Source: Dermatemys mawii
Taxonomy: Eukaryota; Chordata; Testudines; Dermatemydidae
Assembly: GCA_007922305.1 (NCBI GenBank)
Contig: ML677334.1
Coordinates: 60,428,858-60,492,857, forward strand
DNA length: 64,000 nt
Reading direction: 5' to 3'
The notes below the pieces were generated by a model. That model saw only the letters and a list, made by a program, of their open reading frames with translations. It ran no database searches and was not told the DNA's origin. The translations under genes and the position numbers were made by a program. Position 1 is the stretch's first letter; the number at the start of each line of letters is the position of its first letter. Shown one piece after another: positions 3,641 through 54,513 of the stretch.

Positions 3641-6093
3641 CCACTGACCAAGGACAACACTTGTGAGTGTTAATGAGGCTGTTAAGAATGCTGGAGACAC
3701 AACACAGTTCATGCGAACAAACATGGCTGTGGCATTGTACTTTCTATTCAAGCAAGAAATAACACACACTACAAACTGTAGATCAATGTTAAGTGCATTG
3801 TCATCTTGAAGCTGATCACTGGTTTTGAACAAGACCAGCAAATGCTCACTATCTTTCTGCAAGAAACAAAACTGACTGGCTAGAACAGAGGTGGGCAACC
3901 TATGGTCTACGGGCCACATATGGTCTGCGGGCTTGTCCTGCCCGGCCCCCTGAGCTCCCAGCCAGGGAGCCTGCCCCTGGCCCTGCCCCCACCTTCCCCC
4001 CTCCCCAAGAGCCTCAGCGTGCCACGTGGGCAGCACTCTGGAGGGCGGGGCAGTGTGTCTGGCTCCACGCAGCTGCAAGACATGCTGCTGAGTGGCGTGG
4101 TAAGGAGGTTGGGGCTGAAGCCAACGGGTTGCATAATGGGCAGGGAGTCCCAGGGGGCAGTCTGGGAGCAGGCGGAGTTAGATGGGGTGTGGGAGTCCCA
4201 GGGGTCTATTGGGATGTGGAAGGGGGTGGATAGGGGTTGGGGCAGAGAGGGGTTGGTCTCAGGAAGAGGTGGTCAGGAGACAAGGAGCAAGAGGGTGGGG
4301 TCCTGGGGCAGTGGTTAGGTCCAGGGGGATCTTTGGAAGGGGTGGTTAGGGGACAAGGAACAGGAGGGATTGGATGGGTCAGGGATTCTGAGGGGGGCAG
4401 TCAGGGAGTGGGGGGTCTTCAGAGGTGTGGTCAGGGGACAAGGAGCAGGGGGGAGTTCGATGGGGTAGTCAGGGGGCAGAAAAGTGGGAGGGGGTTGGAT
4501 AGAGGGTGGGGCCAAGCCGTTTGGGGAGGCACAGCCTTCCCTACCCAGACCTTCATGCAATTTTGCAACCCTGATGTGGCCCTTGGGCCAAAACATTTGC
4601 CCACCCCTGGGCTAGAAGCATGGGATGCAACAGTGAAAGACTCAACAGTTGAAAAAGTGAAGAACTCTTTCACCACATTCAAAATATTTGCATATATGGC
4701 TGATGAATGCACTGATGAAAATGGGCATCAAGTATTAAGTCACTGTATAAGTTAACTTGATGTCAGTGGTAAGCTAGTAGATGCATTTCTATATGTTCAA
4801 GTTGTAGAAGACACATTGGCTGCATCTGTGACAACCCATATCTTAGAAGAGTTAAATGCTTGCAAATGGACCCCAAAAGGACGGCTGCTTGTGCATTTGA
4901 TGGAGCTGCAAACTTCCCTGGAAGACATGGTGGAGTACAAGCTTGCTTAGATAAAAGTGTAACCCTAATCTCTACTATACACACTGCAGAAGCCATATAC
5001 TCCAACTAGCACTAGTAGGAGATGCAGAATCTTCAAAAGACGTTTAAAAAGCTATACATGTAATGTCTTCATTATATTCTTTTTTCCAGCATGAGTCCAA
5101 AAAGACTGAATATCTGGGAAAATATAGAAGATACACTGGGAACGAAGTTCAGATTAGTCCAACCTGAGAAAACGCTCTGGCTTTCTCATGAGCCATCCTT
5201 GGCTGTTGTCTTAAAATTACTCCAGCTGTTATTATTGGCTTTGGAAAGTAACTACCAAGATGGGATGGATTTAAGTAGTGAGGCTGGTGGATTACTTTTG
5301 CTACTATATTCAGAAAAGATTATTGCCATTCTCTCTCTCATAAGTCTACTGTTGAAATCACGTAGGTCATTAAACAATGCCATCCAGGCATCTGCTACAA
5401 CAGTAGTAGATCTTTGTCCAGCAATAGAAGCTACATTGGATCAGAGAGCTATCCATTGAAAAAGTACTGGAAGAAGCAAAGACTTCAGTCCAGAAGTTGA
5501 CTAATGAAGACATTTATATTGAATTCTTAAGTGAAGGACAAGAAGTGATTGTTAAGACAATTGAAAAAGACTAAATTATTAAAAATCTACAACAGCGACT
5601 TCTAGATTCTACTCAACACTATGGAACTTTTACAGATCCCTGTCTGATAAAAATACTGAAAGTTGAGTGGAGTGAGGCACTACAAGCAATGGGACTGCCA
5701 TGTGCTCAGGACAGAATAGAGGATTTGAACACAGAATGGAATATCATACAATTAATGAATAAAGATTTGACTTCAACTTCTTTTTTATCATTACTAGTGT
5801 CTCGACCCAATCTTTGTGCTATGTTTCCTGGGATGAAAGTAGTAGGAATTCATCTCTTGTTACTCCCAGTAATAGCAGCTACAGTTGAGCATTCTTCTTC
5901 ATCACCGAATAGAATTTTGTATTCCGAAAGAAGTCAACTTCTGCCTGATCATGTGAATGAACTAATGAGAATATCAATTGAAGGAATGGTAGTACCAGAC
6001 ACACAAGAAGCCACCAAAGATGAACACATTGCATTCAAGAAGTTTATTAATGGAGCTGTGCAAAATTATAACAAGAAACCAATAACGATGTAG
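3640..6093 (+). pseudogene. Dead hAT-type transposase gene (DUF4371 plus hAT dimerisation domain)
   Basis: Broken plus-strand frames encode, in order, a DUF4371-like part (FAYMADECTDENGHQVLS, then LVDAFLYVQVVEDTLAASV and ILEELNACK) and a C-terminal hAT dimerisation region (LLLLPVIAATVEHSSSSPNR, LLPDHVNELMRISIEG, then FINGAVQNYNKK). Several stops and frame changes rule out activity. The gene is split at 3886 by a hAT MITE. It resembles the transposase-derived proteins related to ZMYM and KIAA1586; this family call is from memory. The element's own terminal repeats were not found. Confidence 0.75.
3886..4609. mobile_element. hAT-type MITE with 8-bp target duplication
   Basis: The 724-bp element is flanked by perfect direct repeats GGCTAGAA (3878-3885 and 4610-4617). 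The ends are CAGAGGTGGGCAACC and TTGCCCACCCCTG. It is G-rich inside and non-coding, and it splits the hAT transposase remnant. A truncated relative lies at 46445-46759. Confidence 0.9.
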
Positions 6094-8968: not shown

Positions 8969-11900
8969 CTTATAACTTCCCTCTCTGATTTTATTGGCAG
9001 AGTTGACATCTCCACCAGCTTTGTAAGAACTTCAAAGAAGAGAGTCTCTACACCATAAGGGTCATGTATTATGCTCTCTTTGGGCCGGACTGAGGAAAAA
9101 AATACAGATGATCACTTTAAAGGGAATTCCACAGACTATTTCCACCTTAAACATTTCGCCCAAAGAGGTATACGAAAACAAAATTTAATCCTACCCAGAA
9201 GTTTAATCAACATAAACCAAAGAATGTTAAACTGCCTGAGTGCCAATTGCCAAAGAAACTCACAAGATGCAAATTCTAGAAGATTTCTTGAAGGAAAAAA
9301 AAATTACTTTGGTAGTCTGGTTGAATTGCTGGCTTGGAAGTCTTAGACTTGTCTGATGACCTAAAAAACTGTATGTTTACAATATTTAAGTTTTCCCTTC
9401 CAAGGCGTGAAGAGAAGATCAGGTTTGGGTGTGACACTTGTGATGTTGCACTCTATATGATTTTATGAAAATATGCTGATGTGTGAATATAATGTAACTA
9501 AAATATGCTTCATGCAAAAGGTCTCTTGTACGGTATCATTACAAAGCTTATAATCTATTGAGTGTGGTCATCCTATTTGTATAAATGTATCACTCTTATA
9601 TCTGAAACTATAAATATGAAATATAACTCTGAGGGCCTATTGTAATTATGCGAAGTATGGGCCATTAATGGTGGTTTGGAATCTTGATGGCTCCCATCAA
9701 CCAGGACAACTGACTGTGGATGGCTCTGTTTGCAGGCAGGCCTTCCTGAGAGTCAGGCTGGGAGGAATGAAGGCTTGGAGTCTCACAGGAAATGTGACCA
9801 TGTCACCTGGTACTGAAATCCATCTGAGGCCTTGGCTACACTTGCACGTTATACCACAATAAAGCCACCCAGAGCACTCTACCTTACTCCCATCCACACG
9901 GGCAAGGCACGTAGAGCACTCTGACTCCGGGACTAAAGCGCTCCTGGTACTCCACCTCAGCGAGAGGGATAACGTCTGATGCGTATTGGGTGAGACGCCC
10001 CAATGTCAGTATGAACTGCGCTCTGACTGACCTCCGGAAATGTCCCATAATCCCCTTACATCAAGTGGCCAGTCTTCTCATTGTTGTGAAATTGGCTACA
10101 GGAATGCAGAAGTGCCCTTTCAAAGCTCCATTTCAGACAGCCAGCTGCTTATCTGCTCTGAGACAAAGCAAACATTTACTGTTTGCTTTGAGCGAGTGAA
10201 AGAGAGGCAAGGGAGTGAGGGAGGTCTGAACTTACAAGACAGTGTGTTGACACACACTCAGCACCCCAAAAACCCACTCTCTCCCCCGCACATACACACA
10301 ACACACTCCCTGTCACACTCCACCCCGCCCCCACATTTTAAAAGCACGTTGCAGCCACTTGAATGCTGGGATAGCTGCCCATAATGCACCGCTCCCAATG
10401 CAGCTTCAAGTGCTACAAATGTGGCTACGCCAGTGCGCTTTCAGCTGTCATTGTGGACAGACTGCGGTGCTTCCCCTAGTGCGCTCTATGAAGGCTGGTT
10501 TAACTCAAAGCACTCTACCTCTGCAAGTATAGCCAAGCCCTTAAACTTGGTGCTTTTCCATTTAGAAGGGACAGGGTGGGGACCCAGAGCGAGAAAAGAT
10601 TCCTGCCTTGTGCCAAAACCATATAAGGGGGTGCAACAGAACAAAGGAGGCTGCAGTGATGAGAAATCCCCTAGCTACCACCTGAGCTGGAACAAGGGCT
10701 ATAGCAGGGGGAAAGAATTGTGCCCAGACTAGGAAGGCATCTAGTCTGCGAAAGAAACTTATTGAAACATCTCTGAGAGTGAGATTTTATCTGTATTCAG
10801 TCTTATTACTGTATTAGATATAGACTTGCATATTCTATTTTATTTTGCTTGACAATTCACTTCGTTCTGTCTGTTACTACTTGGAACCACTTAAATCCTA
10901 CTTGCTGTACGTATTAATAAAATCACTTTTTACTTATTAATTAACATGGAGAATGTATTAGTACCTTGGGGGGCAAACAGCTCTGTGTGTATTTCTCTAT
11001 CAGTGTTATAGAGGGCAAACAACCTAGGAGTTTGCCCTGCATAAGTTTTATACAAGGTAAATGGATTTATTTGGGGTTTGGACCCCACCGAGAGTTGAGC
11101 ATCTGAGTTTTAAAGACAGGAACGCTTCCTAAAATGTTTTCAACTGAGCCTACAGTTGTCAGGGGACATGGTTCAGACCTGGGTCTGGGTTTGCAGCAGG
11201 CTAGTGGGTCTGGCTCAAATCAGGCAGGTCTCTGGAGTCCCAAGCTGGCAAGGCAAGAAAGCAGGGACAGAAGCAGTCTTGGCACATCAGCTGGCAACCC
11301 TAAGGGAGCTTCTGTGATCCACCAGTCACAACACTGCACCCCATATTCTTCAGTGGTATTATTATGATATGATTATGACATAATTATGATGTATTTTATG
11401 CACTCTCCTATTTTTCCATAGACTGGTCTGTGACCCAAGCTTTGAAACAAAGAGTTCCAGCCATATGCAAAAACTATATAAGGGCGGGAGTGACATGATC
11501 TGGTGTTCTTCGCTCTCCACCCAAGACAATTCCTGGAAACACCTGAGAAACAAAGATTGAACTGAGAAAAGTGCTGGACCCAGGCTAAAGGGCTCAGTGG
11601 TATCACACTGAGCCGTTTAGCCTGGGTCCAGCACTTTTCCCAGGCTGGGATATCACTGATCCCAGGCTAAAGGGCTCAGTGGTATCCCAGTTCCAGGTGG
11701 CACCCCAGGGGGAACTCATTACACCAGGCTCTAACCTTACAACAGGATGATAGCCTAACTTCAGAGCACATTATCAGGGTTGAGAGAAACCCATTTTTGT
11801 TATGGACAAGGTTATTGTTTACAGAAGCATTCCTATATACACATAAGTTCCATTAGAGTAATTTCTTGAAGACTGGCTCAGTTTCCCTTTCTTATTTTTT

Positions 11901-14900
11901 GTAAATTGGTATGTAGTCCATTACTAGTATCAGACTCCTTAAATAATAATATATTTTAATCTGTTTTCTCCTGACTTGTGTAGGCTTCTTTATTTTAAAC
12001 AACAGTTAAGATACACACAGAGAGGGAAAGAGTACCGCATGACTACCTCTGAAACATGCTACTCAATATTCAAAGAGGGATCCAATGAGAATACTATTCT
12101 TGATTAAATTAAACACCTAAAATACAGATTAATTAGGTGGCAGCAAAATCCTAGGCAATATGAAAGTGGAAAGGAATGCACAAATCTTTCCCCTTCTTAT
12201 TTCCATTCTTTTAAGGTTTTGGGTAGATGAAGCATATCCTGCCATAATCTTAATGGACACTAAATGTAGTTTTCATTTAATAACCTGCTAGGTTTTTTTA
12301 TATAGTTTTAGAGTTTTATATAGTTTACATAGTCCTTAAAGCATAGTTTTCCAGTGTCAGGGAGAAAAGCTGTCCTTGCCTGGGAATCAGACAGAAATTA
12401 TACTGCTGAAGCTGCTCCTAACTATGCTGACTCTTCTGAAGAGTGTGGGAGGCTGTGATATGCCTCAAAATCTTTGTCTATACTGCATTTTATCCTCATT
12501 TAAAAAGTTACAGAAAGTACACCAAGAGCAACTCTCCATATTTTAGCAAGTGGTGACAAACTGTCATCTGGAAGGAACTTCCATTAAGTAGTCTGTATCA
12601 CCACTCACTTCCCCAAACACTCAATAGATTCTCATGGACTTCTGGAAATTGGATACAGTCAGGCCCAAGTGCAGGAGCAGGGTGTGCGCCTGCATCACAT
12701 CAGCAAGTCTGTGTGTTGTGCTTCCCGCTTTTCTCTCATCAGTATGAAGGCTGCATCTCAATCTACAAATATGTCAAATGTGAGACAAGACATCTGCAAG
12801 TGAATTAGACATCATCTGGGTTCATACTGGGGGACAGAAACAATGACCTCTCAGCCAAAAAAACGAGTCTTTATAGCTTGTGCTAAAAAATCAGGCTCTC
12901 AAGCTGAGAGGTGCCACACACTCACATCCTCTGCAAACTGGGCACAAAAGGGGACACTAAACACACACTGACAGGTATATTACGCAAACAAGTGGGTGAC
13001 AAATGATTGAAATGTGAAACTATTTTGGAAATTCACACCAGAATTTTCCAGATTATCACAGTTTTTAAGAACAAAACCTGTTCTAAAGAGGTCTTTTCAC
13101 TGTGGGAATCTCATGCAACGATAACAACATCTCCCCACAAGGTGCGTAACAGGGTATGAATCCCTTGACCTCCTGACATTAGCTGTTCATATGTTTTCTC
13201 CTTGACATGCTAGTAGTCTCTCACTATGTCTCACTCATCCCTTCAGGTACTTGGGTTGGAGCTACTAGGAACCACCTGATCTGGCTACCAAGAACTTGAC
13301 ACCAAGAGGAGCCAGCAAAATAATTCTCTCTCTCTGTGCAGGGTCCTAGGACTCAACATTCAGGCAAACTTACCTTATAACAATTACAAGTTTTCAAGCT
13401 ATGATCTGTATTCTCTGAATCCTAACCTATGTCACTGGATTGTCATGATGCCAGTTTCCTATCTGACAGCTGACTAAAATTTTATATTATCTTAAAGACA
13501 TTTTCCAAAGTTATTTTAGATGACTGACTTATTAGTATCTAATATTCTTTATGATACTCTGAAGATTTCCTTTTTATATCAATATTAGTTTCTCTAATCC
13601 ACAATCTCAATTCTGCTCCCATTACACTGGTCTACATTTTTTTTAGAAGTCGTCTGCTTCAGAGATAAAATGTGATATTTATTATGTATTTTGATGTGCT
13701 GAATTCATATATGACAATTAAAACAACTGATTGGCTACTGTTCCTAAGATATTTAAGTTTTTGCATTTTATGTCTATGTATATTGTGTAGATAGAGTTTT
13801 AATCATAAATTGTAAACCTAGGTCTTTTCATGTGTTTATGGTTGCTTTACATGATAATATTTCACCTGTCCTGTTTATGTAACACTTTGAAAATCAGCAA
13901 AAGGGTTATATAAATAAAATGTATTATGAAACAAAAGGCAAAAAACTATTATGTACATAGTTTAGTCCTATTCAGTGTCTACTTGGCGCTTCTTGGCTTG
14001 TTTCTTGTATTCATTAAATGGAGCATCTCTTGTCACTGTCCAGCAATAGTCTGCAAGCACTGATGGGCTCCATTTGCCCTGATAGTGTTTCTCCATTGTT
14101 GCAATGTCCTGGTGAAATCGCTCGCCATGCTCGTCGCCCACTGCTCCGCAGTTCGGTGGAAAAAAATCTAGATGAGAGTGCAAAAAATGTATCTTTAGTG
14201 ACATGTTGCAACCAAGGCTTTTGTATGCCTTGAGGAGGCTTTCCACCAACAACCTGTAGTTGTCTGCCTTGTTGTTTCCGAAAAAAGGAATTGCCACCGA
14301 CTGGAAGGCTTTCCATGCCGCCTTTTCCTTGCCACGCAGTGCATGGTCAAATGCATCATCTCGAAGAAGTTCACGAATCTGAGGACCAACAAAGACACCT
14401 TCCTTTATCTTAGCTTCACTTAACCTTGGAAATTTTCCATGCAGGTACTTGAAAGCTGCTTGTGTTTTGTCAATGGCCTTGACAAAGTTCTTCATCACAC
14501 CCAGCTTGATGTGTAAGGGTGGTAACAAAATCTTCCTTGATTCAACAAGTGGTGGATGCTGAATACTTCTCCTCCCAGGCTCCAATGACTGTCGGAGTGG
14601 CCAATCTTTCTTGATGTAGTGGGAATCTCTTGCACGACTATCCCATTCGCAGAGAAAACAGCAGTACTCTATGTATCCAGTCTGCAGACCAAGCAAGAGA
14701 GCAACAACCTTCAAATAGCCACAAAGCTGCCACTGATGTTGGTCATAGCTCATGCACCTCAAAAGTTGTTTCATGTTGTCATAGGTTTCCTTCATACGGA
14801 CTGCATGACCAACTGGAATTGATAGCAAAACATTGCCATTATGCAGCAAAACACCTTTAACACTCGTCTTCGATGACTCAATGAAGAGTCTCCACTCATC

Positions 14901-17900
14901 TGGATCGTGAATGATGTTGAGGGCTGCCATCACACCATCAATGTTGCAGGCTACAAGATCACCTTCCATGAAGAAGAATGGGACAAGATCCTTTTGACAG
15001 TCACGGAACATGGAAACCCTATCACCACCTGCCAGGAGATTCCACTGCTGTAGTCTGGAGCCTTACTCTTGGGTAGTTCCAAATCCCTGACAAGGTCATT
15101 CAGTTCAGCTTGTGTTATGAGGTGTGGTTCAGAGGAGGAGAATGGGAAAAAATGTGGGTCCTGTGACATTGATGGTTCAGGACCAGAAGTTTCATCCTCT
15201 TCCTCGTCTGACTCAAGTGAGAATGATTCCGGTGCATCAGGAACCGGCAGTCCTTCTCCGTGGGGTATTGAGCGTATAGCTGATAGAATGTTTGGATAAT
15301 GTACAGTCCACTTTTTCTTCTTTGACACACCTTTCCCAACTGGAGGCACCATGCAGAAGTAACAACTGCTGGTATGATCTGTTGGCTCTCTCCAAATCAT
15401 TGGCACTGCAAAAGGCATAGATTTCCTTTTCCTGTTCAACCACTGGCGAAGATTTGTTGCACAAGTGTTGCAGCATATGTGTGCGGCCCACCTCTTGTCC
15501 TGATCTCCAATTTTGCAGCCAAAATAAAGGTGATAGGCTTTCTTAACCATAGTGGTTATACTGCGCTTTTGTGATGCAAAAGTCACTTCACCACAAACAT
15601 AGCAGAAGTTATCTGCACTGTTCACACAAGTACGAGGCATCTCTGCTCACTTTGGCTAAACAGAAATGTGTCCCTTTGCAAAATCAAACACTGACAAATA
15701 AGAGAGCATGACACTGTAGGATTTCTAGAGCTGATCTAGGGCAATATGTTCAGCAGAGTGATGTAAGCTTCATTATGATTGCATCATCCATGACTTCTAG
15801 GAATAACATGATGCAATTCATATCATGTATGACCCAATACCAGCTTCAGATTGCATCATTCATTGTTTTGCCTAAAAAGCAAGTACTGTCCAAATCCAGT
15901 CATAGATTTATTCATAGATTCAGTAAAAGATGTATTTTAGTCATTTCTGGTTTAAACTGAGATCCCTTCCCTTTATAACTCACTTATCCTCCGCCATTCC
16001 CATATCAAGAGTCGTATATACTGACCCAATAGCATATCTTGAAAACTAGAGCCAATCAACAATTTTAAGCATCATTTTTGTTCTCAGTGACCCAGAATTA
16101 GTAAGGTTTGACTACATTTATTTCAGAAGCATTTTGGCTGTAGAGCAGTGTTATCAATGAGTTTTGCCAGTAGAAAAAAAAGAAGGATCAGTTTTTTTCT
16201 CTCTTTCACTGTACAGTTCTTACCCATAGATTGAGCAAAACGATGGTCATCTGTCAGAACGGTTACAAAGTCTGGGAAATTCACCTGCCCATCACCTGCC
16301 AGATAAAGCTCAGTTCAGCCATGGAGAAAAAAAAAAAGACATGATAGACTATATAAAGTAATAAAACCATCAATTAGAAAATATCTATATTAATATGGAT
16401 TTATTTTAGTTTTCTTTCATGCTTACACTGGATTTTGGCATCTCTAATTTGAATAAAAAACAATTTATTTAACCAGGTGCCTAGTTACAGAGACAAAACC
16501 AATCTGATATTCCATAAATAGAGAAAATAAAATCAGCAGACACTCCAGAAAAAATGAAAAGACAAAGCATGGGGACAGGAAAAATGAAAACCAAATAGAT
16601 ATAGAACAGCTTCTACTCAGTCTGGAATTCAGTTTTAGTATCACATATGCAAACATGGGGTCTGATTCCCACAAGTGCTCAGCACCTCTCCAGATCAGGC
16701 CTATTATCATTAATTATTTGAATGACTGTAGAGCCTAATTATGGACCAGACCCCATTGTGCCTTGTACAATCACAGAACAAAAAGAGAGTCCCTGCCCTC
16801 CAAGGGATTTACAATCTACAATCTGTATTCTCACATGCACAAACCCATGCCATCCCAAGTATCTCACACTGACACATCCATACACGCACATGCTCTGCCA
16901 CATTGTCCACAATACTACCCATGTATACACATGCTCCACCAATAAATACGTATTGCTATTCTGAAAACATACGATCAATATCAGCACGATTCAGTGCCTC
17001 AAGGATTTCTTGATGGGTTACATTAATGCCCACACTGTGCAAAATCAGCTTCAGGCCACGCATCTTAACATTATCCTCTGTGCTGCTGAAAATCTTGAAG
17101 ACATCTTTGAATGCTGCAAAAGTATATAAAGCACAGCAAGTTAATCAGATTTTTCATGTGTGTCCACTGCAATGAAACAAGTTTATGTAATGTACTTCCC
17201 AAAATAAATGGCTAACTTTAACATTGTCTCTACCTACTCTCTTCAGCCTATCTAGCACCAGCCAGCTTTTTGTCTCTTTCCAAAAATCTACTTAGAGTGC
17301 AATGGCCTTCTCCACTATAGTCTGTGTCATCTAGGCCTGCCCTCTTGAATCTATCTGCGTAATTTATTCTCCTCACTTTAACTAAAACCTCTTTCCTTTC
17401 TTGACTATATTTCAATTCCTTTCTTATTCTATTATTATTTATTTTAAAATATTTTAAAAAAGCCTTCTATTTTGATTTGTAAAGCAATGTGTGATACACT
17501 TGCTCATTTTCATTCCATTAGTACTAGTAACAGCCCCTTTAAATCACCAATGCAAAACAATTTTTAAAACTACTAATTTACAAGACTGAAGACTGAGTTG
17601 AAGAAGTGAGGCAAGGAGGTTCCACATTACCTGCTATTTGCTTTTGAGTCAAGAGTTCCTCACGCTCTGCTGGAATATCCAGAAGCCTGAAGAGACCAGA
17701 TAGATTTCTGTTCCTGCTGCAAGGACACACATTTAACAACATGATTTCTCCTTGCTGTCTTCCTGTCCATGGACAGACTTAGCCCTACCCAGCTTATTAG
17801 ATCTAATAAGATCACAGTCCAAGGTGACAATATTAATTCAGTACGTTAATTAGAATACTAATTTGATATCATTATTTTTAATTCTGTCTCTTTGGCAGAG

Positions 17901-20900
17901 AGCTTTCAAGACTTCCATAGTGGTGCTACAGCCATGAAAGAGACATGAAGCCTTGATGGGGGAACCACATATGCTAGCATTAGTCACAATGTATTTGTGT
18001 GGCTGCCCACCTATACGTAAGCAGAGTCTGAATGAGCTCTCATCTGACATTTAGCTGTGAGCTGTGGAAAAAGACATCAGCAGCTGATCTCGTTTGCTTG
18101 GACTCTTGTGACTGGTGTTGGATCCCCAGTCTACTTGTTATTGGCACAGGAATAATAAAGGATTTTATCCTTGTTGCGTGAACCAAGGGCAGTACTTTGG
18201 GACAGTGTCTTTATTACAAGAGACTGCGCAGTGTGCTCCCCCACTAACAGCTGAAATCATAGGTGTCGACCCCGTGGATGCTCCGGGGCTGGAGCACCCC
18301 AGGAAAAAGCTCCCCGCCCTGCCGCAGCTCACCTCGCCTCTGCCTCCTCCCCTGAGCGCTTTGCATCCCCGCTTCTCCTCCCAGGGCTTGCCACCACAAA
18401 ACAAGCTGTGGGAAGATGCGGGAAGGAGTGGGAACCCAGCATGGTCAGGGGAGGAGGTGGGGAAGAGGCGGGACCAGAGCAGGAATTTGGGGGAAGGAGT
18501 CCAATAGGGGCAAGAAGGAAGAGGAGTTGGGGCGGGGACTTTGGGGAGGGGTTTGGAATGGGGGCAGGGTGGGGGTAGAGTCAGGGTGGGGTCGAGCACC
18601 CACTGGCGCCAGGAGAAGTTGGTTCCTACATAGCTGGATAAATGGTAAAAGTATGTCACAACTATACTACACCAGAAACATCAAAACTGGCCAGAGATGT
18701 ATTAAACTCAAAATATCTGATTAAAAAAAAATACAGAGGAAGCTCATCTGCCAAAACACAAAATCTATATAGCAGATCAGGCTTTTTCCACTCACTTCTT
18801 TGTTGGAACATTCAACCCAGTATCTGTCGAGAATGAAATTTTCTCTGCATCTCTAATGTCCAGATCTGAGATGTGAACCTCAGTTTCAATATCCAATAGG
18901 GATGGAAGTGTCTGTTCCTCTAGTATTTCAAGATTTGAGGATTGCACTAGTGTCTCAGTTTTTAAGAATGTCAGAGGCTCTTCCACTGAAGTTTCAAGAT
19001 GTGAAGATTGCTCCTGAATCTCAAAATGTAACAGAGACAAAAATTCTAGTTGTTCTTCTTTCACCAGTTCTTTCTTCTCTTCTTCTTCCTCTTCTTCCCC
19101 CCAAAGTATGTCAGGATTTGAGCTTTGTACATGGGCTTCGGTTTTTAATGAGGAGAGAGAATTTTTTTCCACTGCTAGTATTTCAAGATTTGGGGTTTGC
19201 ATCTGGTCTTTAGTATGTACTGGAATTTTAGGATCCTCCTCCTCCTGAAGAGACAGCAGAGCAACAGACACTTGAATCTCCACTTCTTCCTTGACCTGTT
19301 TGTTGGCTTTTTCATAGTGCTGTCATAAAGAACAAAAACTCACTATAATTATAGCCATCTAGTCTCCAAAATTAAAATTATACTCTCAGCCAAGAAAACT
19401 GCTGTCTCAACACTGCACCCAGTATAAACCTTCATCATGAGCCAAGTAACACTCTTCATAGGCAGACTGCTTACTCAGCTGCTGCTACTGTACTCGCAAG
19501 GGTAAGGTCAAGAATATCCCAGAGGCAAAGATGTGGTTATGACCTGACACAAGTTGATGCAAAACATCTGCTCACTAATCTTAATATGAATGAACCACTT
19601 ATGACACAGAATGAACCACTTATGACCCTCCTTACGAAAAGATGCAGAACAATGACAGAAACAGGACTAGATGCAACTAGGATACTTTGTGCATACTTTC
19701 CACTTACATACATTTACTACAGCACATGAGCTGTTCAACTGCACTCCTGCAACACAATCTAAAAGGACATTTGGAAAAATAGTAGTCCTATTGGAGGTCT
19801 GAGAGTCATAGCCGAAGTATGATAATATATAGAACTTCTACAGCTATATATATTTAGTTTTAAAATATAAAATTAGACTGTGATGTTTATGTGACTTGTG
19901 TGCATGGTTCTTTTACACCAACCAAGATAGGGTCCCTGCCCTGAGATGTTTTACAATAGCCATCACAAATACATCATCAATACTATATGATAAATTAAGT
20001 ACATTAAGTCAACTAAAGAGACGGTCACCTAAAAAAATTAACATTTGTCTGAATTGTATTTCAAGTTAACACCAAAGATGAATATATCTAAAGAGGTTAG
20101 AAAAAAATATTTTCTTTATTTTTCAGTTTGTTCACTTTGTGAACTTGACAGCTGTCTGAGGTCAGCAGGTTTCCCTTGTTTGTTCCTTTTCAGAGGAGAG
20201 AGAGACATTTCTAAGTACAGAAATGTGTGACTAAAATCATAGGAAGATTCAATGGCAGGTGTAGTACAGGGAACCAAGCTTTAACTCATTTTGCTGTATT
20301 GACTTGATTTCTGTTAATAATTAAATATTACAGATAATCATCATCATACAACACAACATAGCAGTGTCTTCCAGTTTTAACAAACAATACCAAACCATTA
20401 ACAGTTTTGATAATACAGACCTCATTTCAATTAGTAAAGTGTTTCTCCTCCAAGGCCTTCCACAACCCTGCTCTTTATCACTGAACCAAATCCTTTAATT
20501 CTACTAGAGAAACCTATCTCACTGCTTCCTTATTTCCCACATATCATCACGTTATACTCTCCCTCCTCTCAATTCCTTCCCCAAAAATCAGCAGCCCCCT
20601 TCAGCACCTCCTCCTCCCACTGCGGGCCCCAACGATCAGCACCTTCCCATCCTTCCGCCCACCAGTCAGCTGTTTCATTGCACAAAGGAGGCTGGGGGGG
20701 GGAGGGGAGGAGCGAGGACGTGGCACACTTGAGGGAGGGGTGGAATGGGGTGAGAAGAGACAGAGTGGGGGTGGGTGGAATGAGACTTTGGGGGAGGGAG
20801 TGGAGTTGGGGCGGGGCTTGGGGCAGATCCAGGGGTTGAGCACCCTCCAGCACATTGTAAAGTCAGTGCCCGTGAATCCAACAGATATTTGTGAAGAGGG

Positions 20901-23900
20901 AAGGTGACAACTCTCCAGAGCTTCTAGGCAGAAGGCGTGTGCCAGAGACTTCAGGAAGCATTAGCTTGCTGGATGAGAATCCACAGCTAGGAGGACTGCA
21001 AAGAAGAGGAACCCCTGATAAAGGACTGGGAAGACTTTTGAGCCAAGAGAGAAGACTACATGGTTGCTGAAGCCCAATATAAACTAAAAGGATTGACTCA
21101 GCCAAGGAAAGAGGGCTGGAAGGTTTTGTGATCATTTTATAGTATTAAATCACATCAAGAAGGGGGGCCATATTATGAAAACACAAATTGTGTTATCCTT
21201 GTACACAGATTTGAAGGAGTTCTTTAAAATGTCCCGTCATATTTCAAAAGCATCTGTTTTTCCTAGCATTATATATTTAAAACAAAAAAGAACAAATCGA
21301 GAGATCTGAATTAACAGATGCTCAGCGGCCTCCATTTCATAATTTCCCCTTCTCAGGCTCTCACAGAGGACCAGTATTGGGTTCACAATGGTGATGGGCC
21401 CAGACTGGAAAGGGGCCCATTATGGACCCATCTAAACCATCCACATGACCGGACCTGGCCCCTCATGCAAGGCAGTCCAGTGTCCAGGCCTTGCTCTGTG
21501 AGTGGCTCCCAGCCAGCAAATTAAGTAGATTTGTGACTGACAGTTGATAAGAACCTGAGAAAGAAACTTAACTAGGGAAATGCATTCAACTAGTGTAATG
21601 ACAAAGCCATTAGTTTTTTTTTCTCCTCTTGATAATCGCCCATCCAAATTAAACAGCCTCTTAGAATCAGTATGGTAATTTATAACTTTTTTTGCATATA
21701 AATGCATCTTAGTTCTGTGCATTCCATTCTATACATCTGATGAAGTGGGCTATAGCCCACAAAAGCTTATGCTGAAATAAACTGGTTAGTCTCTAAGGTA
21801 CCAAAAGTATTCCTCATTTTATTTACGGATACAGACTAACACGGCTGCTAATTTAAACTCCATATCAGGAATCCCTTCCAGGGATATCCCTAGGACTGCT
21901 GTGGGCAAGAAGAGTCCTTGGAAATGCAGCTCCAGTGCCATTCTGCATGTTTCTGGACGGGCCCTGTGGCCAAGTCTGCTGCATCAGAGTGTGGGAGAAA
22001 CCCAACAGAAAGATTAAGGAGCAACTCTAAAGGACTCCTCAAAGAGATTTTCTCTCCATGAGCTCCCTCCTGCACTTTTTACCACAGGAAAGAATGATCC
22101 AGTCCTCAGTCTATGGGAATTTTTCCTGAGTAAGGAACTAATAAAAACCTCAGGATCTGGCTATGTGAAGTGATCTGAAAAGCATCTTTGGATTATTTTT
22201 TTCAAAGAACTTTAGGAACTAAGCACCCAAATCCACCTGAAATTCAATTGAAGTTTGGCACTTAACTCCCTTAGGCTTCTTTGAAAATCCCAGTCTTTTT
22301 CTACATTGGCTATCAACACTAGCACAGGACTGGACATAACATCCAAAAACGGCACTTCAGACTTTGTATGTTGTTACCATAGTCACATTCATTGGGTAGG
22401 TTAAAGGCACAAGGCTACTTACTCACAGTGTACTCAATCCATGATTATGGCACAATGATACAAACCATGGCATAGCTTAATTGATTTAAAAATACATATA
22501 TAGCTAAAGGTAGCACCCACTGCAGGAGGTCCTGCTGGCCATGTGATTTCCTGGTTTGATTCTTCATCTTCCATTTTAAATTCACCAGCCCACTCTGGAT
22601 GAACTTTGTTTGAACAACATCTGCAACATAAGATACAAGAAAGAGATTGACAGTGGCAGTTGTTAAACTTTTACCAATGCACAAGTGTGGCTGGTGCCTT
22701 AATAGCAATTGGAAAACATTATGTTTAGGGTGCTGGGAGTTGAGATATCCAAGTACATCGTCTTAAAGAAGTGCTCTATGGAGCGATGCATGTGGCTTGA
22801 TGGAAAAATACTGCATCATAAGTATTAACAAGAAAAGAGTAAAATGGAGTAATATGGTTCCTTAGCACCTTCACTTGATGTTGCTGTGAAATAGCAATTA
22901 AGTCTTCAATATAAAGATCTCCATCCACACAGTGAGATTTTGCAAACTCCAAAAGACAATCATTTCTGAATTTCCTTCTTTAGTAGCCCAGTTCAACTAT
23001 GCACTGCACAGTTCTGATAATATGAAAGGTGGTGGTTAAAATAAATTAGACATTTGAATAATCTATTTGCCCTGCCTAAAGTAATATAACAGGAGTAGCC
23101 AAACTTACTGACCCTCCGAGACGCATATGACAATCTTCAGAAGTTCAAGAGCCATTGCGTGCCTGCCAGGGCTCAGGGCTTCAACCCCCTGGCGAGCATA
23201 CCTGCCAGGACTCGGGGCTTTAGTCTTTTTGGAGGAGGATCTCAGGTTTCAGCCCTGCTCCTGCTGAAGCCCTGAGCCCTAGCAGGCATCGCCCCCACCA
23301 TAGTTGAAGCTCTGAGACCCTCTTTCCTGCTGGATGTGTGTGGGGGGGTCCCATGGGGTCAGATGCCCCCCCCAGATTTTTGCCAGGATTTGCTGACCCA
23401 CCTTGGTCACATCGTGTCGCTAGGCCCCCTCCTTGCACGGCAGCTGCTGGAGTTGGCAACCTGGGATCTGCGGCTGTGGGGAGAGGCAGCCGCAAACTGC
23501 ACGGAGCTGCAAGGAGAACTGCTGATAAGAGGGGAGGTGTGCCTTGGAGAGGACATGACTCAAGCTGTTGGGGGGTGAATCTTTAAACTGTAACCCCCTA
23601 CTCTCATCACACACCACTCATCTCTGACAAAAAGCCCCTGGCCTCACTACCGGGCCACAGGGCAGAAATCTCAAGCTTTCTCCACCTAATCTGGTAGGCA
23701 GAGAATGGGGCGGGGGGGGGGGGGGGGCGGGGGGGTTCCACAAGATACACTTTAACTGTAAAATACAAACAAAAAAAAACACACCACACATACAGCTCAC
23801 AAGCTGTGGTTTGGCCACCCCAGTAATATAACATTTAGCACTTTTATAAAGCTTTTAATCTTCAAAACACTTTACAAACTGACAAATTACACATAGGCAC

Positions 23901-26900
23901 CGAATTTCTGATTTCCCAGGGAAGGGGAGCTCAAGCCCTGCTCTGTCCCAGGCCCTGCGCCCAGTCCACTCCTTCCCCCCAAAGTCCCACCCCTTCCTGC
24001 ACCTGTTCCACCCCTTCCCACAAGGGCACCCTATCGACAACTGGTGCCTCCTCATATGGGTGGGGACGCTATCTAAATGGGAGATCATATGTCCTCCCCT
24101 GCCAACACTGTCATGCCCAGCTCAGGGCCAACGGGCTCTTCCTGCCACACATTACTGGGGGCGGGGGAGGAGGAGGACACTCTGTCCTCCCATTGCGCCT
24201 GACCTTCCCTCCTCCCCGCAGCACATTCCTCTGCTCTCCCTGGAGGGAGGGAGCCCAGGCAGGGAGCGGGAAGGAGCCGCTTTTAATGACAGCTCCTCCT
24301 GGTTCCTGCTCTGCATCCCAGCAGCTGCCTTAAAGAGCCTGGCTGTGGAGGCTGCTTCCACTCCCCACCTGGGCTTGACTGCTGTGGACCCAGACTGAAT
24401 GACCCGAAAACGTGCCAGGGAGGAGGAAGCGGGGCTCCAGCTTACTTGCCTGTGGTTCCCAGACACTGAGCCTAGACAGAGAGAGGAAGCTGCCTCCCCA
24501 GTCAGGCTCTCTCAGGCAGCCGCCAGCCTGCCATACTGCAGAGCAGCATCCCAGCAGCCGGAAGGGGCCTGTTCCTACTTCTTCCACTCCCCAGCATCTA
24601 GGGAAGCCCCCTCTGACATCACTCAGCCCTGCCTCACTTCTTTCCATCCCCAGCGCCTCCTGCACACTGCTGAACAGCTGACCATGGTGGACAGGAGGCT
24701 CTGGGAGGGAGGGGGAAGGAACTGAACAGCAGAAGGTCAGAGGGAGGGAAGGAGGGCCCACCAATAGATGCTAAGCAGCCACTATTTTTTTTCCAGTGCC
24801 CATGAAATTACATAAAAACATTCACTACCAAACAGAAGAAAAAGTTGTACAGTATTCATTTTTGGCAGTCTTAGGGATTTTCAGAGTGCACTGAATTGAT
24901 GGAATTAGGCTTGCAGACCCCCATAAATCCACAGTACACCTTTCCAAAGTCATCATCTTCACTTTCAAAATTCTCCATAACTCCACACCAGCCTATATCT
25001 CCTCTTATATCCATTCCTACTTTTCTTCTCTCTCTGCCTAAATATGCTTTTTTCTACCTGTTCCCTACACTGGAAATTCATTCCAGTTATGAGTAGGGCT
25101 CTGGGTATGTCACGGAGGTCTTGGAAGTCACGAATTTTGTGACTTTCCACCATCTCTATGACTTCTGCTCAGGTGGCCCCAGGGGCCATCACATCCACCA
25201 CTGTTGGAACAGCTCTGCTGCCACCCACTCAAGCAGTCCCCTGCAGTCAGCCACGCTGACTGCTGCTTGGGCAGCCCTGGGGAAGCTGGCCTGGGAACCT
25301 GAGCAGCAGCCAGTGCAGCTGACCCTGGGGACTGCTGGTGCTGCTGGCCCCGGACACCCCCCTCTCCAGCAGCAGCCCCCTGAGAAGGACATTTATAGTA
25401 TAAGTCTTGGACAGGTAACGGTCTGTGAATTTTTGTTTATTGTTCATAACATGTCCATGACTTTTACTAAAAATACCCATGACTAAACTGTAGCCTTTAT
25501 AATGACCATATGACATCATGTGCTTATATTTTGTATTGAACTGTATTTTATTACCTTATTGCTTTAGACTACAAAATTTCCATCTTCATGACTGGATCCT
25601 GTCTGTCTGCCACCCACATAATGTCTTACATACAGAAGTGGCAAATTCTTTAGAAGCAAAAATATGGCTTACTTTAGAATAGATTCATTGTCCGGTGGAG
25701 GGCCAACACAGCAGAAGAATAATCTCCATCTCCCTGTAAATTGAATAGAACAAGATTAAGTAACAGTCAAAAGGTCTACAAGATGACAACGAGAGCATAA
25801 TGTTTCGGCTTTGTTCTTGTGTGTGACTTCGGCAATAGATAGCTTTTGAAGACACCAAGGGACCCACAATACTATTGCCAACTAAAGCATGGCTTCTTTA
25901 AGGCAAGGGATAGAGGGTGCCTTTGGTTTTAGAGCTGAAGGACCAGGGCTCTGATCCTAGTTTTCTAGGAGGTATGCTGGTGATTTATATCATAATGGTA
26001 TCTGTTGTCTACAGAGTCCATTTACATTACAAATGGTTTTTACCTTTAACTTTACTCATCTCAGGTACTCCAGGAGAATATAAATTAAACATGGAAAAGA
26101 TACAGAAAAAGGTAGAGAGTCAAGACCTGGGTTTAGCTGAGCTCTAAAAATATAATCGCACACTGGGATTTGCCAACCTTTTGCATATTCAGATTGTCAA
26201 GCAATTCCCCTGACTCCTCATTTATTTCCGGATCACCTCTAAACTGTTCCCCTTAAAGTATTCCATGGACTTGCTTTGCCACTCCCAGACCTCATCACAT
26301 GCCTTCTCTACACTCCAATTCAGATGCTGAGTGGAAGTGAGATAATGAGGAAGAGGAGGGAGCGAATGGGAAAGGAAAGGTGTAGCAGAGTGAGGGGTGT
26401 GGCTGGGAGGCAGGGTGTGGAAGCAGGGGGAAGAGTTCAGGAAGGTGATGGGGTGTAATTGAAGAGAGGGAAGGACAAGGGAGGTGAGGGGTCAGGAGGA
26501 AGGGGTGATTGAGGACAAAGTGAGAGGGGCTAAGAGGTCACTAAGAACAAGGAGTTTGGGGATTTCGGAGGAAGACAAGGTGCAGGTGACAGTGTGTCTT
26601 TCAGGGTGTGTCACTGAAAACGGGGCGTGGGGACAGGAGAGAATGCGGGGACAAGGGTCTGTGACTGGAGACAAGGTGTGGGGGGCAGGGGGCGAGAGCA
26701 CCGGGTGATCTAGGACAACGTGTGGGGACAGAAGAAAGCAGAAACTGAGGAAATGGGGAGGGGGGCGGGGTGATTGAGGCGCACACGGTGAGGACAGGAG
26801 AGGGAGGTGGGGGAATAGCGGCCGCTGAGGCGCACAGGGCGTCAGCGATTACTTGAGCAGTCCCGGGTGGGAGGGTCTGTGTGGGGGCAGCAGGTGTGAG

Positions 26901-27040
26901 CGAGCGGCGGGTTATGGGAGGGGGCGGGAGTGACTGAGGAGTAGGGGAAGGGACGGGCGCATTCCCGCCTATTTGCCCCGCTCTCCCCCTCACTCTCCAG
27001 TGCCCCCCCCCGCTCTCTCTCCCTCACCTCTGCTCCCCAT
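8969..27040 (-). CDS. EF-hand protein of the SPATA21/EFCAB3 type, eight 5' exons, 3' end outside window
   Basis: Eight minus-strand exons join in phase: 27028-27040 (ATG), 25673-25733, 22521-22620, 18796-19319, 17631-17716, 16973-17113, 16224-16295 and 8969-9089. Each has a GT donor and AG acceptor, and the joined frame has no stop over 372 codons. The protein starts MGSRGRWRLFFCC, where Gly2 and Cys12-13 could be acylated, although Arg6 is unfavourable for myristoylation. An acidic repeat region follows (about residues 59-232), then an EF-hand pair region (about 255-335) with the loop DIDRDGQVNFPD, then a helical segment (TLFFEVLTKLVEM). From memory, this order and the segment after the loop resemble mammalian SPATA21 and EFCAB3, which suggests a testis or cilium role; the function is inference. 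The last exon ends with two bases of a codon, so more exons must lie left of 8969. None was recognised in 1-8968. Orthology to either human gene is unresolved. Confidence 0.82.
9430..11330 (+). mobile_element. Solo LTR, split by a MITE
   Basis: The ends are TGTGAC and GTCACA. Removing the MITE at 9828-10540 leaves about 1.19 kb. A likely polyadenylation signal AATAAA is at about 10917. No target duplication was found (TTGGG against ACACT), which could mean a rearranged or eroded copy. No gag or pol remains in the element. It lies in an intron of the EF-hand gene. Confidence 0.7.
9828..10540. mobile_element. Harbinger-like MITE inside the solo LTR
   Basis: The ends GGCCTTGGCTACACTTGCAC and, reading inward on the other strand, GGGCTTGGCTATACTTGCAG form about 20-bp inverted repeats. 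The flanking triplets are TGA and TTA, a slightly decayed 3-bp TWA target duplication. The TIR resembles the shorter elements at 41849, 49400 and 62861. Confidence 0.75.
11331..11750. repeat. Second LTR-like repeat with a long hairpin
   Basis: A CTATATAAGGGCGGGAGTGA block near 11474 looks like an LTR promoter and is followed by turtle LTR-like text. The hairpin at 11567-11638 lies within it. Boundaries were not found. Confidence 0.4.
11567..11638. repeat. Imperfect palindrome, 33-bp arms
   Basis: The left arm (11567-11599) and right arm (11606-11638) pair with one mismatch around a 6-base loop. Part of the left arm recurs at 11660-11686 (CCCAGGCTAAAGGGCTCAGT). Confidence 0.9.
11751..13967. 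other. Intron sequence with no recognised feature
   Basis: AT-rich sequence of the large intron between exons 7 and 8 of the EF-hand gene. No coding exon, RNA gene or repeat end was recognised. Confidence 0.5.
13968..15640 (-). mobile_element. Transposon-borne ORF of unknown superfamily, one clear frameshift
   Basis: A long minus-strand frame starts with MPRTCVNSADNFCYVCGEVT at 15640. Cys pairs (CYVC, CCNTC, CYFC) suggest a zinc-binding N-terminus, followed by an acidic linker (LESDEEEDETSG). Near 15055-15070 a small deletion shifts the frame after LPKSKA. The next frame (to 13968, ending KKRQVDTE) continues with LQQWNLLAGGDRVSMFRDCQ and runs about 360 residues without a stop. Motifs include FFMEGDLVACNI, KVVALLLGLQTGY, CCFLCEWDSRARDSHY, PPLHIKLGVMKNFVKAID and FPPNCGAVGDEHGERFHQDI. 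Similar repeat-borne proteins occur in many animals, but I cannot name the superfamily. It sits in an intron of the EF-hand gene on the same strand. Single-frameshift preservation suggests a fairly young copy. Confidence 0.7.
15641..16223. other. Intron sequence 5' of the transposon ORF
   Basis: Probably contains the left flank of the transposon at 13968-15640. No terminal repeat was recognised and no exon is seen before 16224. Confidence 0.35.
16224..17113 (-). CDS. Exons 6 and 7 of the EF-hand gene: the EF-hand module
   Basis: Exon 6 (16973-17113) encodes AFKDVFKIFSS then LKLILHSVGINVTHQEI, the helix-loop-helix of a degenerate first hand. The codon split across the exon 6/7 junction completes the second loop, DIDRDGQVNFPD. 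It has Asp at positions 1, 3, 5 and 12 and Gly at 6, so calcium binding is likely. Exon 7 (16224-16295) continues FVTVLTDDHRFAQSM. The intron between them contains an old repeat at 16735-16830. Confidence 0.82.
16735..16830 (+). repeat. Old amniote LINE-derived repeat
   Basis: The text ACCCCATTGTGCCTTGTACA, then ACAGAACAAAAAGAGAGTCC and TTTACAATCTA, matches a widespread old amniote repeat recalled as LINE-derived. A weaker related piece is at 19912-19970 (GGGTCCCTGCCCTGAG). Confidence 0.5.
18260..18628. mobile_element. GC-rich non-autonomous DNA repeat
   Basis: The ends TAGGTGTCGACC and AAGTTGGTTCCTA are diverged inverted repeats. The inside (GGATGCTCCGGGGCTGGAGC at about 18274) recurs in diverged form at 20580-20875, 23898-24080 and 50046-50220, so this is a multi-copy family. 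It lies between exons 4 and 5 of the EF-hand gene. Confidence 0.6.
18796..19319 (-). CDS. Exon 4 of the EF-hand gene: acidic tandem-repeat exon
   Basis: This 524-nt exon starts in phase 0 (HYEKANKQVKEEVEIQ) and ends with two bases of a codon before a GTGAGT donor. It encodes about four copies of a degenerate 22-28-residue unit with a core like TEaxVQSSNLEIL, followed by an acidic, Leu-rich stretch. A run of Glu (GEEEEEEEKKE) sits between the first two clear units. Such a segment is probably disordered or forms a short coiled coil. The plus-strand reading frame over the same bases is a shadow. Confidence 0.8.
19325..20570. other. Intron sequence, nothing recognised
   Basis: AT-rich intron between exons 3 and 4 of the EF-hand gene. 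Apart from a faint old repeat near 19912-19970, nothing is supported. Confidence 0.45.
20580..20875. mobile_element. Fragment of the GC-rich DNA repeat family
   Basis: Purine-rich text ending GGGTTGAGCACCCTCCAGCA matches the right end of the 18260-18628 element. The left boundary is unclear. Confidence 0.45.
21600..21852 (+). mobile_element. 5'-truncated Penelope-like element, 3' tail
   Basis: The stretch runs parallel to the 3' untranslated part of the copy at 28440-29050: CTCTTGATAATCGCCCATCC, then TAAATGCATCTTAGTTCTGT, then the ribozyme-like core. It ends with ACAGACTAACACGGCTGCTA, the typical tail end. Confidence 0.78.
21737..21774 (+). ncRNA. Hammerhead-ribozyme-like core in Penelope tail
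   Basis: CTGATGA (21737-21743) is followed by a perfect 6-bp stem II (GTGGGC, TATA loop, GCCCAC; 21745-21760), then AAAA where a hammerhead needs GAAA, then a 2-bp stem III (GC TTAT GC) and T. Penelope-like elements are known to carry minimal hammerheads with a very short stem III. The G-to-A change in GAAA, and G at the cleavage position (21774), predict that this copy is inactive. Confidence 0.6.
23090..23823. mobile_element. hAT-type MITE with 8-bp target duplication
   Basis: The ends CAGGAGTAGCCAAAC and GTTTGGCCACCCCAG are inverted repeats. TAATATAA flanks both sides (23082-23089, 23824-23831). The element is 734 bp and non-coding, and contains the G-run at 23707-23735. Confidence 0.85.
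23707..23735 (+). repeat. Guanine homopolymer tract
   Basis: Four G, a C, sixteen G, a C and seven G in a row. It could form a G-quadruplex, and its length may be unreliable in sequencing. Confidence 0.85.
23898..24830. mobile_element. Probable GC-rich DNA repeat, diverged
   Basis: It begins with TAGGCACCGAATTTCTGATT, like the left end of the 18260 family, and may end near CAGTGCCCATGAAATTA at about 24796. The interior is GC-rich with no supported gene. The boundaries are tentative. Confidence 0.35.
25091..25497. mobile_element. Non-autonomous DNA repeat
   Basis: The right end (GACTTTTACTAAAAATACCC, then ATGACTAAACTGTAG) and the left end (TAGGGCTCTGGGTATGTCAC) are weak inverted repeats. The right end matches 7984-8055 in reverse. 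It lies between exons 2 and 3 of the EF-hand gene. Confidence 0.55.
26450..26960 (+). repeat. G-rich degenerate minisatellite next to the CpG island
   Basis: Phrases such as GGTGATTGAGG, GGGGACAGGAGA and ACAAGGTGTGGGG recur about every 60-80 bases with many substitutions. The block lies in intron 1 of the EF-hand gene, just downstream of exon 1. Confidence 0.5.
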
Positions 27041-44723: not shown

Positions 44724-45260
44724 GAGAGATTAGATATTTACATAAACAAGAATATCCATGTTCTAATAGTTACAAAACAAAGAGTTTGGAAAGGATATGA
44801 ACTCTCATTCCCCAGTGCTAACCAGTACCTAAAAGGAGGGTTAGTAGAAACTTTTCCTGTGCACAGGTTAACTCCCTACTGCAGGTTTTCTTGCACCACA
44901 TATGAAGCATCTGGTGCTGGCCATGACTGGTAACAGGATTCTTGATAAGATGGACCACAGTTCTGATGCAGGATGGTAATTCCTATGAGGAAACTGTACA
45001 GTGTGTGTTTTCAGGAGCTTGCACTGGGGTGGTTACACTGATGCAAACTGCTTCAAGTTTGCTTGACCTTAGTTCTGTTACACACTGATGATTCAAGGAA
45101 TTCACTCTGAAGATGTGACATTTGTAATCTGCTTTGTGAACAATGTATTAAGATTTCCACAAGTGTGACCCTCCCTACACTAGACAGCAAAGTTTTAAAA
45201 TGGTTGTAAAATTCCCCCATTTATTATTTTTTTTAATATGGAGATATGCCTCTCATATAA

Positions 45261-45438
45261 GAACTGGAAAGACCCTGAAAGGTCATGGAGTCCAACCCCC
45301 TGCCTACAATAGCAGGACCAAATTCTGTCCCCTGACAGATTTTTTGCCCTCATCCCTAAATGGCCCCCTCAAGGATTGAGCTCACAACCCTGGGTTTAAG
45401 GAGGCCAATGCTCAAACCACTGAGCTATCCTTCCTCCC
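45261..45438 (-). repeat. Cry-type tRNA-derived SINE with CR1 tail
   Basis: The minus strand reads GGATAGCTCAGTGGTTTGAG (A box) then GGGTTGTGAGCTCAATCC (B box), a body with GGGGGCCATTTAGGGAT, and a CR1 tail (GGTCCTGCTATTGTAGGC, GGGGTTGGACTCCATGACC). This is the well-known SINE of cryptodiran turtles and the strongest lineage clue in the window. Confidence 0.85.
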
Positions 45439-45671
45439 ATCTGTAAATGTGATACAGGTCTCAAGGGAAGTACTTGGAAAAACCAGTAAAACTCTGCTAT
45501 TAAGTTAGCATTTAATTATGGCACTCTAACAGTCTTTCCAGTCACAGTAAAGAAGTCATCATCAGCCAAAGGACGAAGTGCTTCTTCAAACATTTATTTA
45601 ATGACAGCCTTAAAGAGAAGAGAAAAGCTTGAGAACATATGCAAAAGGCTACATGCTACAAAGCGCCTAAA

Positions 45672-45828
45672 CCAGGGATCGGCAACCTTGGCACGCGGCC
45701 CCCCAGGATAAGCACCTTGGTAGGCCCAGCTGGTTTGTTTACCTGCTGTGTCCGGAGGTTCAGCCGATCGTGGTTTCCACTGGCCGCAGTTTGCCGCTCC
45801 GGGCCAATGGGGGCTGCGGGAAACACCA
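45672..45828. mobile_element. hAT-like MITE, truncated
   Basis: It begins CCAGGGATCGGCAACCTTGG and continues with GCTGCGTCCGGAGG-like text and GGCCAATGGGGGCTGCGGGA, a very common turtle element. The right end is missing. Confidence 0.65.
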
Positions 45829-46410: not shown

Positions 46411-46444
46411 AGAGATTTCCATTTAGTTTTCCTAAAAACTTAAG

Positions 46445-54497: not shown

Positions 54498-54513
54498 ATG
54501 GCTGGATCCACAG
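54498..54513 (+). CDS. UBE2V2: Probable first exon of UBE2V2 (ubiquitin-conjugating enzyme variant)
   Basis: ATG GCT GGA TCC ACA G ends at a GT (GTCTGT) and encodes MAGST plus the first base of a Gly codon. Human UBE2V2 starts MAVSTG with a very short first exon in the same phase, and UBE2V2 is the neighbour of MCM4 in tetrapods. UBE2V2 is a catalytically inactive partner of UBE2N in K63-linked ubiquitin chains. The next exon was not found up to 64000, so intron 1 exceeds 9.4 kb, as in mammals. Weak points: the donor is not a strong consensus, and only 16 coding bases are available. PRKDC, the usual head-to-head partner of MCM4, also starts MAGS, but the following residues do not match it. 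Confidence 0.45.

What the first reader, a model, noticed from the sequence alone, without database searches (positions are those of the whole stretch)
8969..27040. A multi-exon EF-hand gene next to a MCM4 locus that fits no gene known there in mammals
Eight exons, found by reading splice sites and phase on the minus strand, join into one open frame of 372 codons; seen in sequence. The EF-hand module and the segment after it resemble SPATA21 and EFCAB3 (established families, recalled). In mammals neither gene lies next to MCM4/UBE2V2. This is either an unlisted reptile paralogue, an ancestral gene lost near MCM4 in mammals, or SPATA21/EFCAB3 moved by rearrangement.
Basis: partly seen in the sequence, partly recalled or inferred. 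Interest (0 to 1): 0.75.

Follow-up and report, generated by a model that had tools for sequence, protein, structure and literature searches.

The report
Turtle EF-hand gene beside MCM4
The window holds most of a real, intact turtle gene for a calcium-binding (EF-hand) protein related to sperm-tail proteins; it sits between MCM4 and UBE2V2, is a distant cousin of EFCAB3 and SPATA21 rather than EFCAB3 itself, and computer annotation already lists it in other turtles without explaining it.

Summary
Eight minus-strand exons (27040 to 8969) join without a stop into 372 codons; three more exons lie just left of the window, giving 11 exons and 490 residues. Eight annotated turtle proteins match at 79-87% identity over 60-100% of the query. 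The order in the window's own genome is PRKDC(-), MCM4(+), this gene(-), UBE2V2(+), so the locus claim is right, but MCM4 proper lies outside the window; the MCM4-like exon at 45522-45608 is a decayed inverted copy. The gene is not EFCAB3: this genome has a separate EFCAB3 on contig C89, and turtle and mammal EFCAB3 form one clade without it. Four of four core introns compared agree with EFCAB3 in position and phase, so it arose by a copy that kept its introns. No second SPATA21-like locus was found, by an insensitive search, so a moved SPATA21 remains a serious rival. Likely product: a sperm-axoneme scaffold with one calcium site; this function is inferred. New member of a known kind, modest interest.

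The parts
27028..27040 (-). exon 1 (start codon, MGSR), in a G+C-rich stretch
   Evidence: like the first residues of P0001
25673..25733 (-). exon 2
22521..22620 (-). exon 3
18796..19319 (-). exon 4, acidic low-complexity region
17631..17716 (-). exon 5
16973..17113 (-). exon 6, EF-hand 1 (degenerate loop) and start of EF-hand 2
16224..16295 (-). exon 7, rest of the EF-hand 2 loop (DIDRDGQVNFPD)
8969..9089 (-). exon 8, helical module after the EF-hands; exons 9-11 follow off the window
   Evidence: off-window exons
45522..45608 (-). decayed copy of the last MCM4 exon, inside an inverted copy of the MCM4 3' end spanning about 44732-46434; not part of the gene
54498..54513 (+). candidate UBE2V2 exon 1 (ATGGCTGGATCCACAG|GT); further UBE2V2 exons lie off the window
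   Evidence: exon 1 itself is assigned by likeness to a recalled start, MAVSTG

Best explanation
This is an intact 11-exon protein-coding gene (490 residues) of a turtle, lying between MCM4 and UBE2V2 on the opposite strand. It is an old paralogue of EFCAB3 within the EFCAB3/SPATA21 family, made by a copy that kept its introns and separate from EFCAB3 before turtles and mammals split. Shown: gene structure, conservation in turtles, separateness from EFCAB3, shared introns. Inferred mechanism (about 35% likely as stated): like EFCAB3, the product is a structural protein of the sperm doublet microtubule. Its EF-hand pair, with a degenerate first loop and one canonical second loop, and the helices after it would form a docking surface for an axonemal partner such as a TSSK6-type kinase module, tuned or stabilised by calcium. 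The acidic N-terminal half, which begins with a conserved FFCC motif, would be a flexible tether.
For: Spliced frame with no stops and correct splice signals; 8 turtle homologues at 79-87% identity; Emydura (a side-necked turtle by recalled taxonomy) keeps exons 1-8 in line with the other five turtles aligned. Best PDB sequence match is bovine EFCAB3, 8otz_u: E 5.6e-17 with the window's own 110 residues and E 5.8e-26 over residues 236-447 of the Chrysemys orthologue, past the EF-hands. Own EFCAB3 on another contig, C89; three other turtles have annotated EFCAB3 (Emys, Emydura, Gopherus), Emydura on a different contig from its copy of this gene. Turtle-gene clade 100/99, EFCAB3 clade of turtles and mammals 99/97. 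Holding the gene with turtle EFCAB3 is rejected at p 0.023. Four of four core intron positions and phases agree with own EFCAB3. EFCAB3 belongs to a sperm doublet-microtubule module with TSSK6 and CFAP97D1 (PMC13066092 and PMC11779644, passages).
Against: No expression evidence was available. Function is carried over from a paralogue about 37% identical in the core. The AlphaFold model is confident only over about residues 256-395, and its nearest listed folds are general EF-hand proteins, which says nothing about sperm. The AU rejections are moderate (p 0.023 and 0.039) and the tree program warned of long branches. No second SPATA21-like locus was found, which suits the moved-SPATA21 rival.
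Confidence: 0.6

Rival explanations
1. It is the turtle orthologue of SPATA21, at MCM4/UBE2V2 in turtles and elsewhere in mammals because of a rearrangement in one lineage.
For: Human SPATA21 core against this genome at E<=1 gave 6 matches: three on C18, one on C38, one on C246, and this gene itself; no clear second SPATA21-like locus. The rooted tree does not reject gene + SPATA21 (p 0.46). Source annotation calls the Chrysemys and Trachemys proteins SPATA21-like. Both have a shortened first EF loop (alignments).
Against: Core identity to SPATA21 (36.5%) is no higher than to EFCAB3 (36.6%). The SPATA21 query is weak: it scored this gene only at E 0.42, so a diverged true SPATA21 could be missed. 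The SPATA21 N-terminal half shows no counterpart in the sequences printed (by eye).
Confidence: 0.32
2. It is a recent, turtle-only duplicate of EFCAB3.
For: Shared introns; only turtle proteins came back.
Against: Turtle EFCAB3 groups with mammal EFCAB3 at 99/97 without this gene; gene + turtle EFCAB3 rejected, p 0.023.
Confidence: 0.05
3. It is a pseudogene or a splicing artefact.
For: No RNA evidence was available; some turtle models are irregular, P0008 most.
Against: Frame open over exons 1-10 to a stop in the candidate exon 11; 79-87% identity in turtles with exons reproduced in the three aligned.
Confidence: 0.03

Closest known systems
EFCAB3 (sperm doublet-microtubule associated protein; PDB 8otz, 9fqr, 9v10)
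   Same: EF-hand pair plus the following helical module aligned over about 210 residues; four core introns in the same place and phase.
   Different: Separate locus in the same genome; about 37% core identity; first EF loop degenerate and shorter; long acidic N-terminal region; it ends soon after the SPYA motif, without the long EFCAB3 C-terminus.
SPATA21
   Same: Same EF-hand/helix module to the SPYA motif, 36.5% mean core identity; shortened first EF loop.
   Different: No shared N-terminal half seen (by eye); mammalian SPATA21 lies at another locus (recalled, not tested).
EFCAB13 / Efcab3-like
   Same: Related to EFCAB3: PMC8662591 (passage) says a recombination split one conserved gene into EFCAB3 and EFCAB13 in human and gorilla.
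   Different: Not compared here; no EFCAB13 sequence was fetched.

Membership tests
EFCAB3 (one-to-one orthologue) | groups with EFCAB3 of turtles and mammals | tested here: not met
   EFCAB3 clade 99/97 with 12 rows excludes the 9 turtle-gene rows
EFCAB3 (one-to-one orthologue) | only EFCAB3 locus in the genome | tested here: not met
   EFCAB3 exons at 71-89% identity on C89; the window is on C9
EFCAB3/SPATA21 superfamily | EF-hand pair followed by the conserved helical module up to the SPYA motif | tested here: met
EFCAB3/SPATA21 superfamily | shared intron positions and phases in the core | tested here: met
   4 of 4 introns compared, read by eye, against own EFCAB3 only; SPATA21 introns not available
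SPATA21 (one-to-one orthologue) | groups with SPATA21 when non-mammal SPATA21 is included | tested here: inconclusive
   gene+SPATA21 p 0.46, gene+EFCAB3 support 54/0; only mammal SPATA21 was in hand
SPATA21 (one-to-one orthologue) | lies beside NECAP2/SZRD1 (recalled) | tested here: not met
   neighbours are MCM4 and UBE2V2; whether another SPATA21 lies beside NECAP2/SZRD1 in this genome stayed unanswered
Functional calcium-binding EF-hand | canonical 12-residue loop | tested here: met
   second loop DIDRDGQVNFPD (Asp at 1, 3, 5 and 12), first loop degenerate; Pfam: the joined exons score below the curated cut-offs, the Chrysemys orthologue passes one, EF-hand_8 30.1 against 28, and Pelodiscus and Emydura none
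Sperm axonemal protein | presence in sperm doublet microtubules | not testable with these tools
   no expression or proteome data here

The most novel reading that the evidence does not exclude
A third, ancient branch of the EFCAB3/SPATA21 sperm EF-hand family was present at the MCM4-UBE2V2 interval of early amniotes, was lost from that interval in mammals and perhaps other lineages, and survives as an intact gene in turtles of both living suborders (the suborders recalled, with Emydura as the side-necked turtle).
Probability: 0.42. Interest if true: 0.4.

Novelty: new member of a known kind. Interest (0 to 1): 0.3.

Why it matters
Sperm-tail proteins are known to turn over fast between lineages (recalled), and EFCAB3 is part of a TSSK6/CFAP97D1 module that mouse work calls functionally indispensable (PMC13066092, passages). 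An extra old family member kept intact in turtles would show that the module's parts list differed in early amniotes, and it gives a defined locus at which gain, loss or relocation can be checked in birds, crocodiles, lizards and mammals.

Tried and rejected
EFCAB3 moved by rearrangement: rejected. Recent EFCAB3 duplicate: disfavoured. A first scan of the window for short recalled motifs of MCM4, UBE2V2 and PRKDC gave no match; the longer queries did. Exon 4 as a real internal repeat array: the best self-match (48) did not exceed the best of 100 shuffles (49), so no claim. Rooting the three clades with calmodulin did not resolve them. Pfam gave no clear family for the transposon-like reading frames. 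VIA-align on the model listed general EF-hand neighbours; EFCAB3 was not among the 50 rows shown, which is inconclusive. Literature: 'spermatogenesis-associated protein 21' with 'turtle', 'spergen-2' and three gene ids plus SPATA21-like each found 0 papers in the held library, which is incomplete. Recalled SNAI2, CLXN and PRKDC C-terminal pieces gave no match in the 264 kb at E 0.01.

Full report
What was claimed and what is there. Reading the strand and listing splice contexts gives exons 27040-27028, 25733-25673, 22620-22521, 19319-18796, 17716-17631, 17113-16973, 16295-16224 and 9089-8969, with seven AG acceptors and eight GT donors. Joined they are 1118 nt, 372 codons plus two bases, with no stop.

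It is a gene, not chance. A search with the joined protein returned 8 proteins at E <= 0.001 out of 4608 candidates, from Chrysemys, Mauremys, Eretmochelys, Pelodiscus, Emydura, Natator, Trachemys and Dermochelys, all turtles, at 79-87% identity over 60-100% of the query. A ninth species, Chelydra, has a 148-residue fragment. Three of the eight (P0001, P0003, P0006) were shown aligned back to the window and reproduce the exons. Some models are irregular: P0006 has a 5' extension and reads on into intron 7, P0005 and P0007 end at about the end of exon 8, P0008 begins differently. Source names are SPATA21-like, EFCAB3-like, uncharacterized or unnamed, so the gene is listed but, as far as three literature searches show, not described.

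The gene runs on beyond the window. The window is C9:60428858-60492857 of an unnamed 1.81 Gb genome. Exons 9 and 10 lie at window -772..-959 and -2259..-2401, and a candidate exon 11 of seven codons and a stop at about -3817. The protein so joined has 490 residues and no internal stop. In six turtle sequences, 38 of 47, 20 of 24 and 33 of 40 residues of exons 6, 7 and 8 are invariant, against 96 of 174 in exon 4; the counts for exons 9-11 in that call mean nothing because the Emydura model stops early.

Where it lies. Twenty neighbouring stretches were fetched and joined with the window. Recalled human proteins place PRKDC N-terminal exons at -47.3 to -52.2 kb (-), exons of the C-terminal half of MCM4 at -23.4 to -17.3 kb (+), this gene at about -3.8 to 27.0 kb (-) and UBE2V2 exons at 82.8 and 95.8 kb (+), with a candidate first exon at 54498. 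The UBE2V2 exon for residues 7-55 was not found in this stretch. So the gene lies between MCM4 and UBE2V2, tail to tail with MCM4. The MCM4-like exon in the window (45608-45522, minus) has an in-frame stop and lies in an inverted copy of MCM4's 3' end: four aligned pieces, 84-92% identical, over about 44.7-46.4 kb. It is not the MCM4 gene, and the EF-hand gene thus sits between an MCM4 3' end and its inverted copy.

What family it belongs to. The best PDB sequence match is bovine EFCAB3 (8otz_u): E 5.6e-17 with 110 residues joined from the window, and E 5.8e-26 over residues 236-447 of P0001, which runs past the EF-hands through the following helices to the SPYA motif. A tree of 29 rows (the window protein and 28 chosen from the 211 proteins fetched) over 196 core columns gives the turtle gene as one clade (100/99), EFCAB3 of turtles and mammals as another (99/97) and mammal SPATA21 as a third (100/100). 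Mean core identities are 36.6% (gene-EFCAB3), 36.5% (gene-SPATA21) and 34.2% (EFCAB3-SPATA21). The program warned that long branches meet. With two irregular rows (Natator, Dermochelys) left out, 27 rows, holding the gene with turtle EFCAB3 is rejected at p 0.023, and with mammal EFCAB3 at p 0.039. Rooting with two calmodulin lobes, with those two rows and one wombat EFCAB3 left out (28 rows), leaves the three clades unresolved: gene+EFCAB3 54/0; gene+SPATA21 p 0.46; EFCAB3+SPATA21 p 0.457.

Two genes in one genome. A search with Emys EFCAB3 found exons at 71-89% identity on contig C89, 8182153-8193848. Annotated EFCAB3 also exists in Emys, Emydura and Gopherus; in Emydura it lies on a contig of 10.2 Mb while its copy of this gene lies on one of 26.8 Mb. 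Comparing splice sites by eye, four of four core introns fall at the same residue and phase in EFCAB3 and in this gene: in the Ala codon before the first Phe of the EF core (phase 1), inside the second EF loop (phase 1), just after the second EF-hand (phase 1) and in the Ser codon before Tyr-Tyr (phase 2). This fits a DNA-level copy, not a retrocopy. Human SPATA21 against the same genome at E <= 1 gave six matches: three on C18, one each on C38 and C246, and this gene itself at E 0.42. The five others are short EF-hand matches; none was examined further. The search is weak, so SPATA21 may be absent, diverged, or be this very gene. The NECAP2 and SZRD1 requests that would have helped to settle it did not complete.

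How it may work. The second EF loop, DIDRDGQVNFPD, is canonical with Asp at position 12; the first lacks the usual acidic ligands. The model of the Chrysemys orthologue, built on 42 sequences, is confident over about residues 256-395 and low elsewhere; its listed solved neighbours are general EF-hand proteins. EFCAB3 is reported as a sperm-specific doublet-microtubule protein bound with TSSK6 and CFAP97D1, TSSK6 lying outside the seam, and it is lost together with them when Tssk6 is removed (PMC13066092, passages; PMC11779644, passages). SPATA21 came up in a screen for PKA-RI-alpha partners (PMC8700991, passage). By analogy, this protein probably serves the sperm axoneme; that step is inference.

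Verdict. Observation confirmed, interpretation partly supported. It is a new member of a known family, already in automatic annotation; the open and interesting point is whether it is a third ancient branch or SPATA21 at another address.

Noticed in passing
13968-15646, minus strand (intron 7): Two long overlapping reading frames (364 and 231 codons) inside intron 7, the upstream one cysteine-rich; no clear Pfam family. Looks like a mobile-element protein.
   Followed up: partly
5064-6093, plus strand: Two reading frames that may be a decayed hAT-type transposase: the second has a weak dimerisation-domain match, E 0.031, below the cut-off; the first has none of note.
   Followed up: partly
44732-46434, minus strand: Inverted copy of the 3' end of MCM4, with its last exon and downstream sequence, 84-92% identical in four pieces; one alignment ran to the end of the query, so the copy may be longer.
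   Followed up: yes
25673-27040 (exons 1-2): The N-terminus MGS..(R/K)W..FFCCVGPP is conserved in six turtles; the cysteine pair after an aromatic stretch could be a lipid-attachment site, untested.
   Followed up: no
L035, L036, L039, L040, L041, L042, L044, L045: Short EF-hand matches on C18 (two neighbouring places), C38, C40 and C246 of the same genome, possibly calmodulin-like genes.
   Followed up: no
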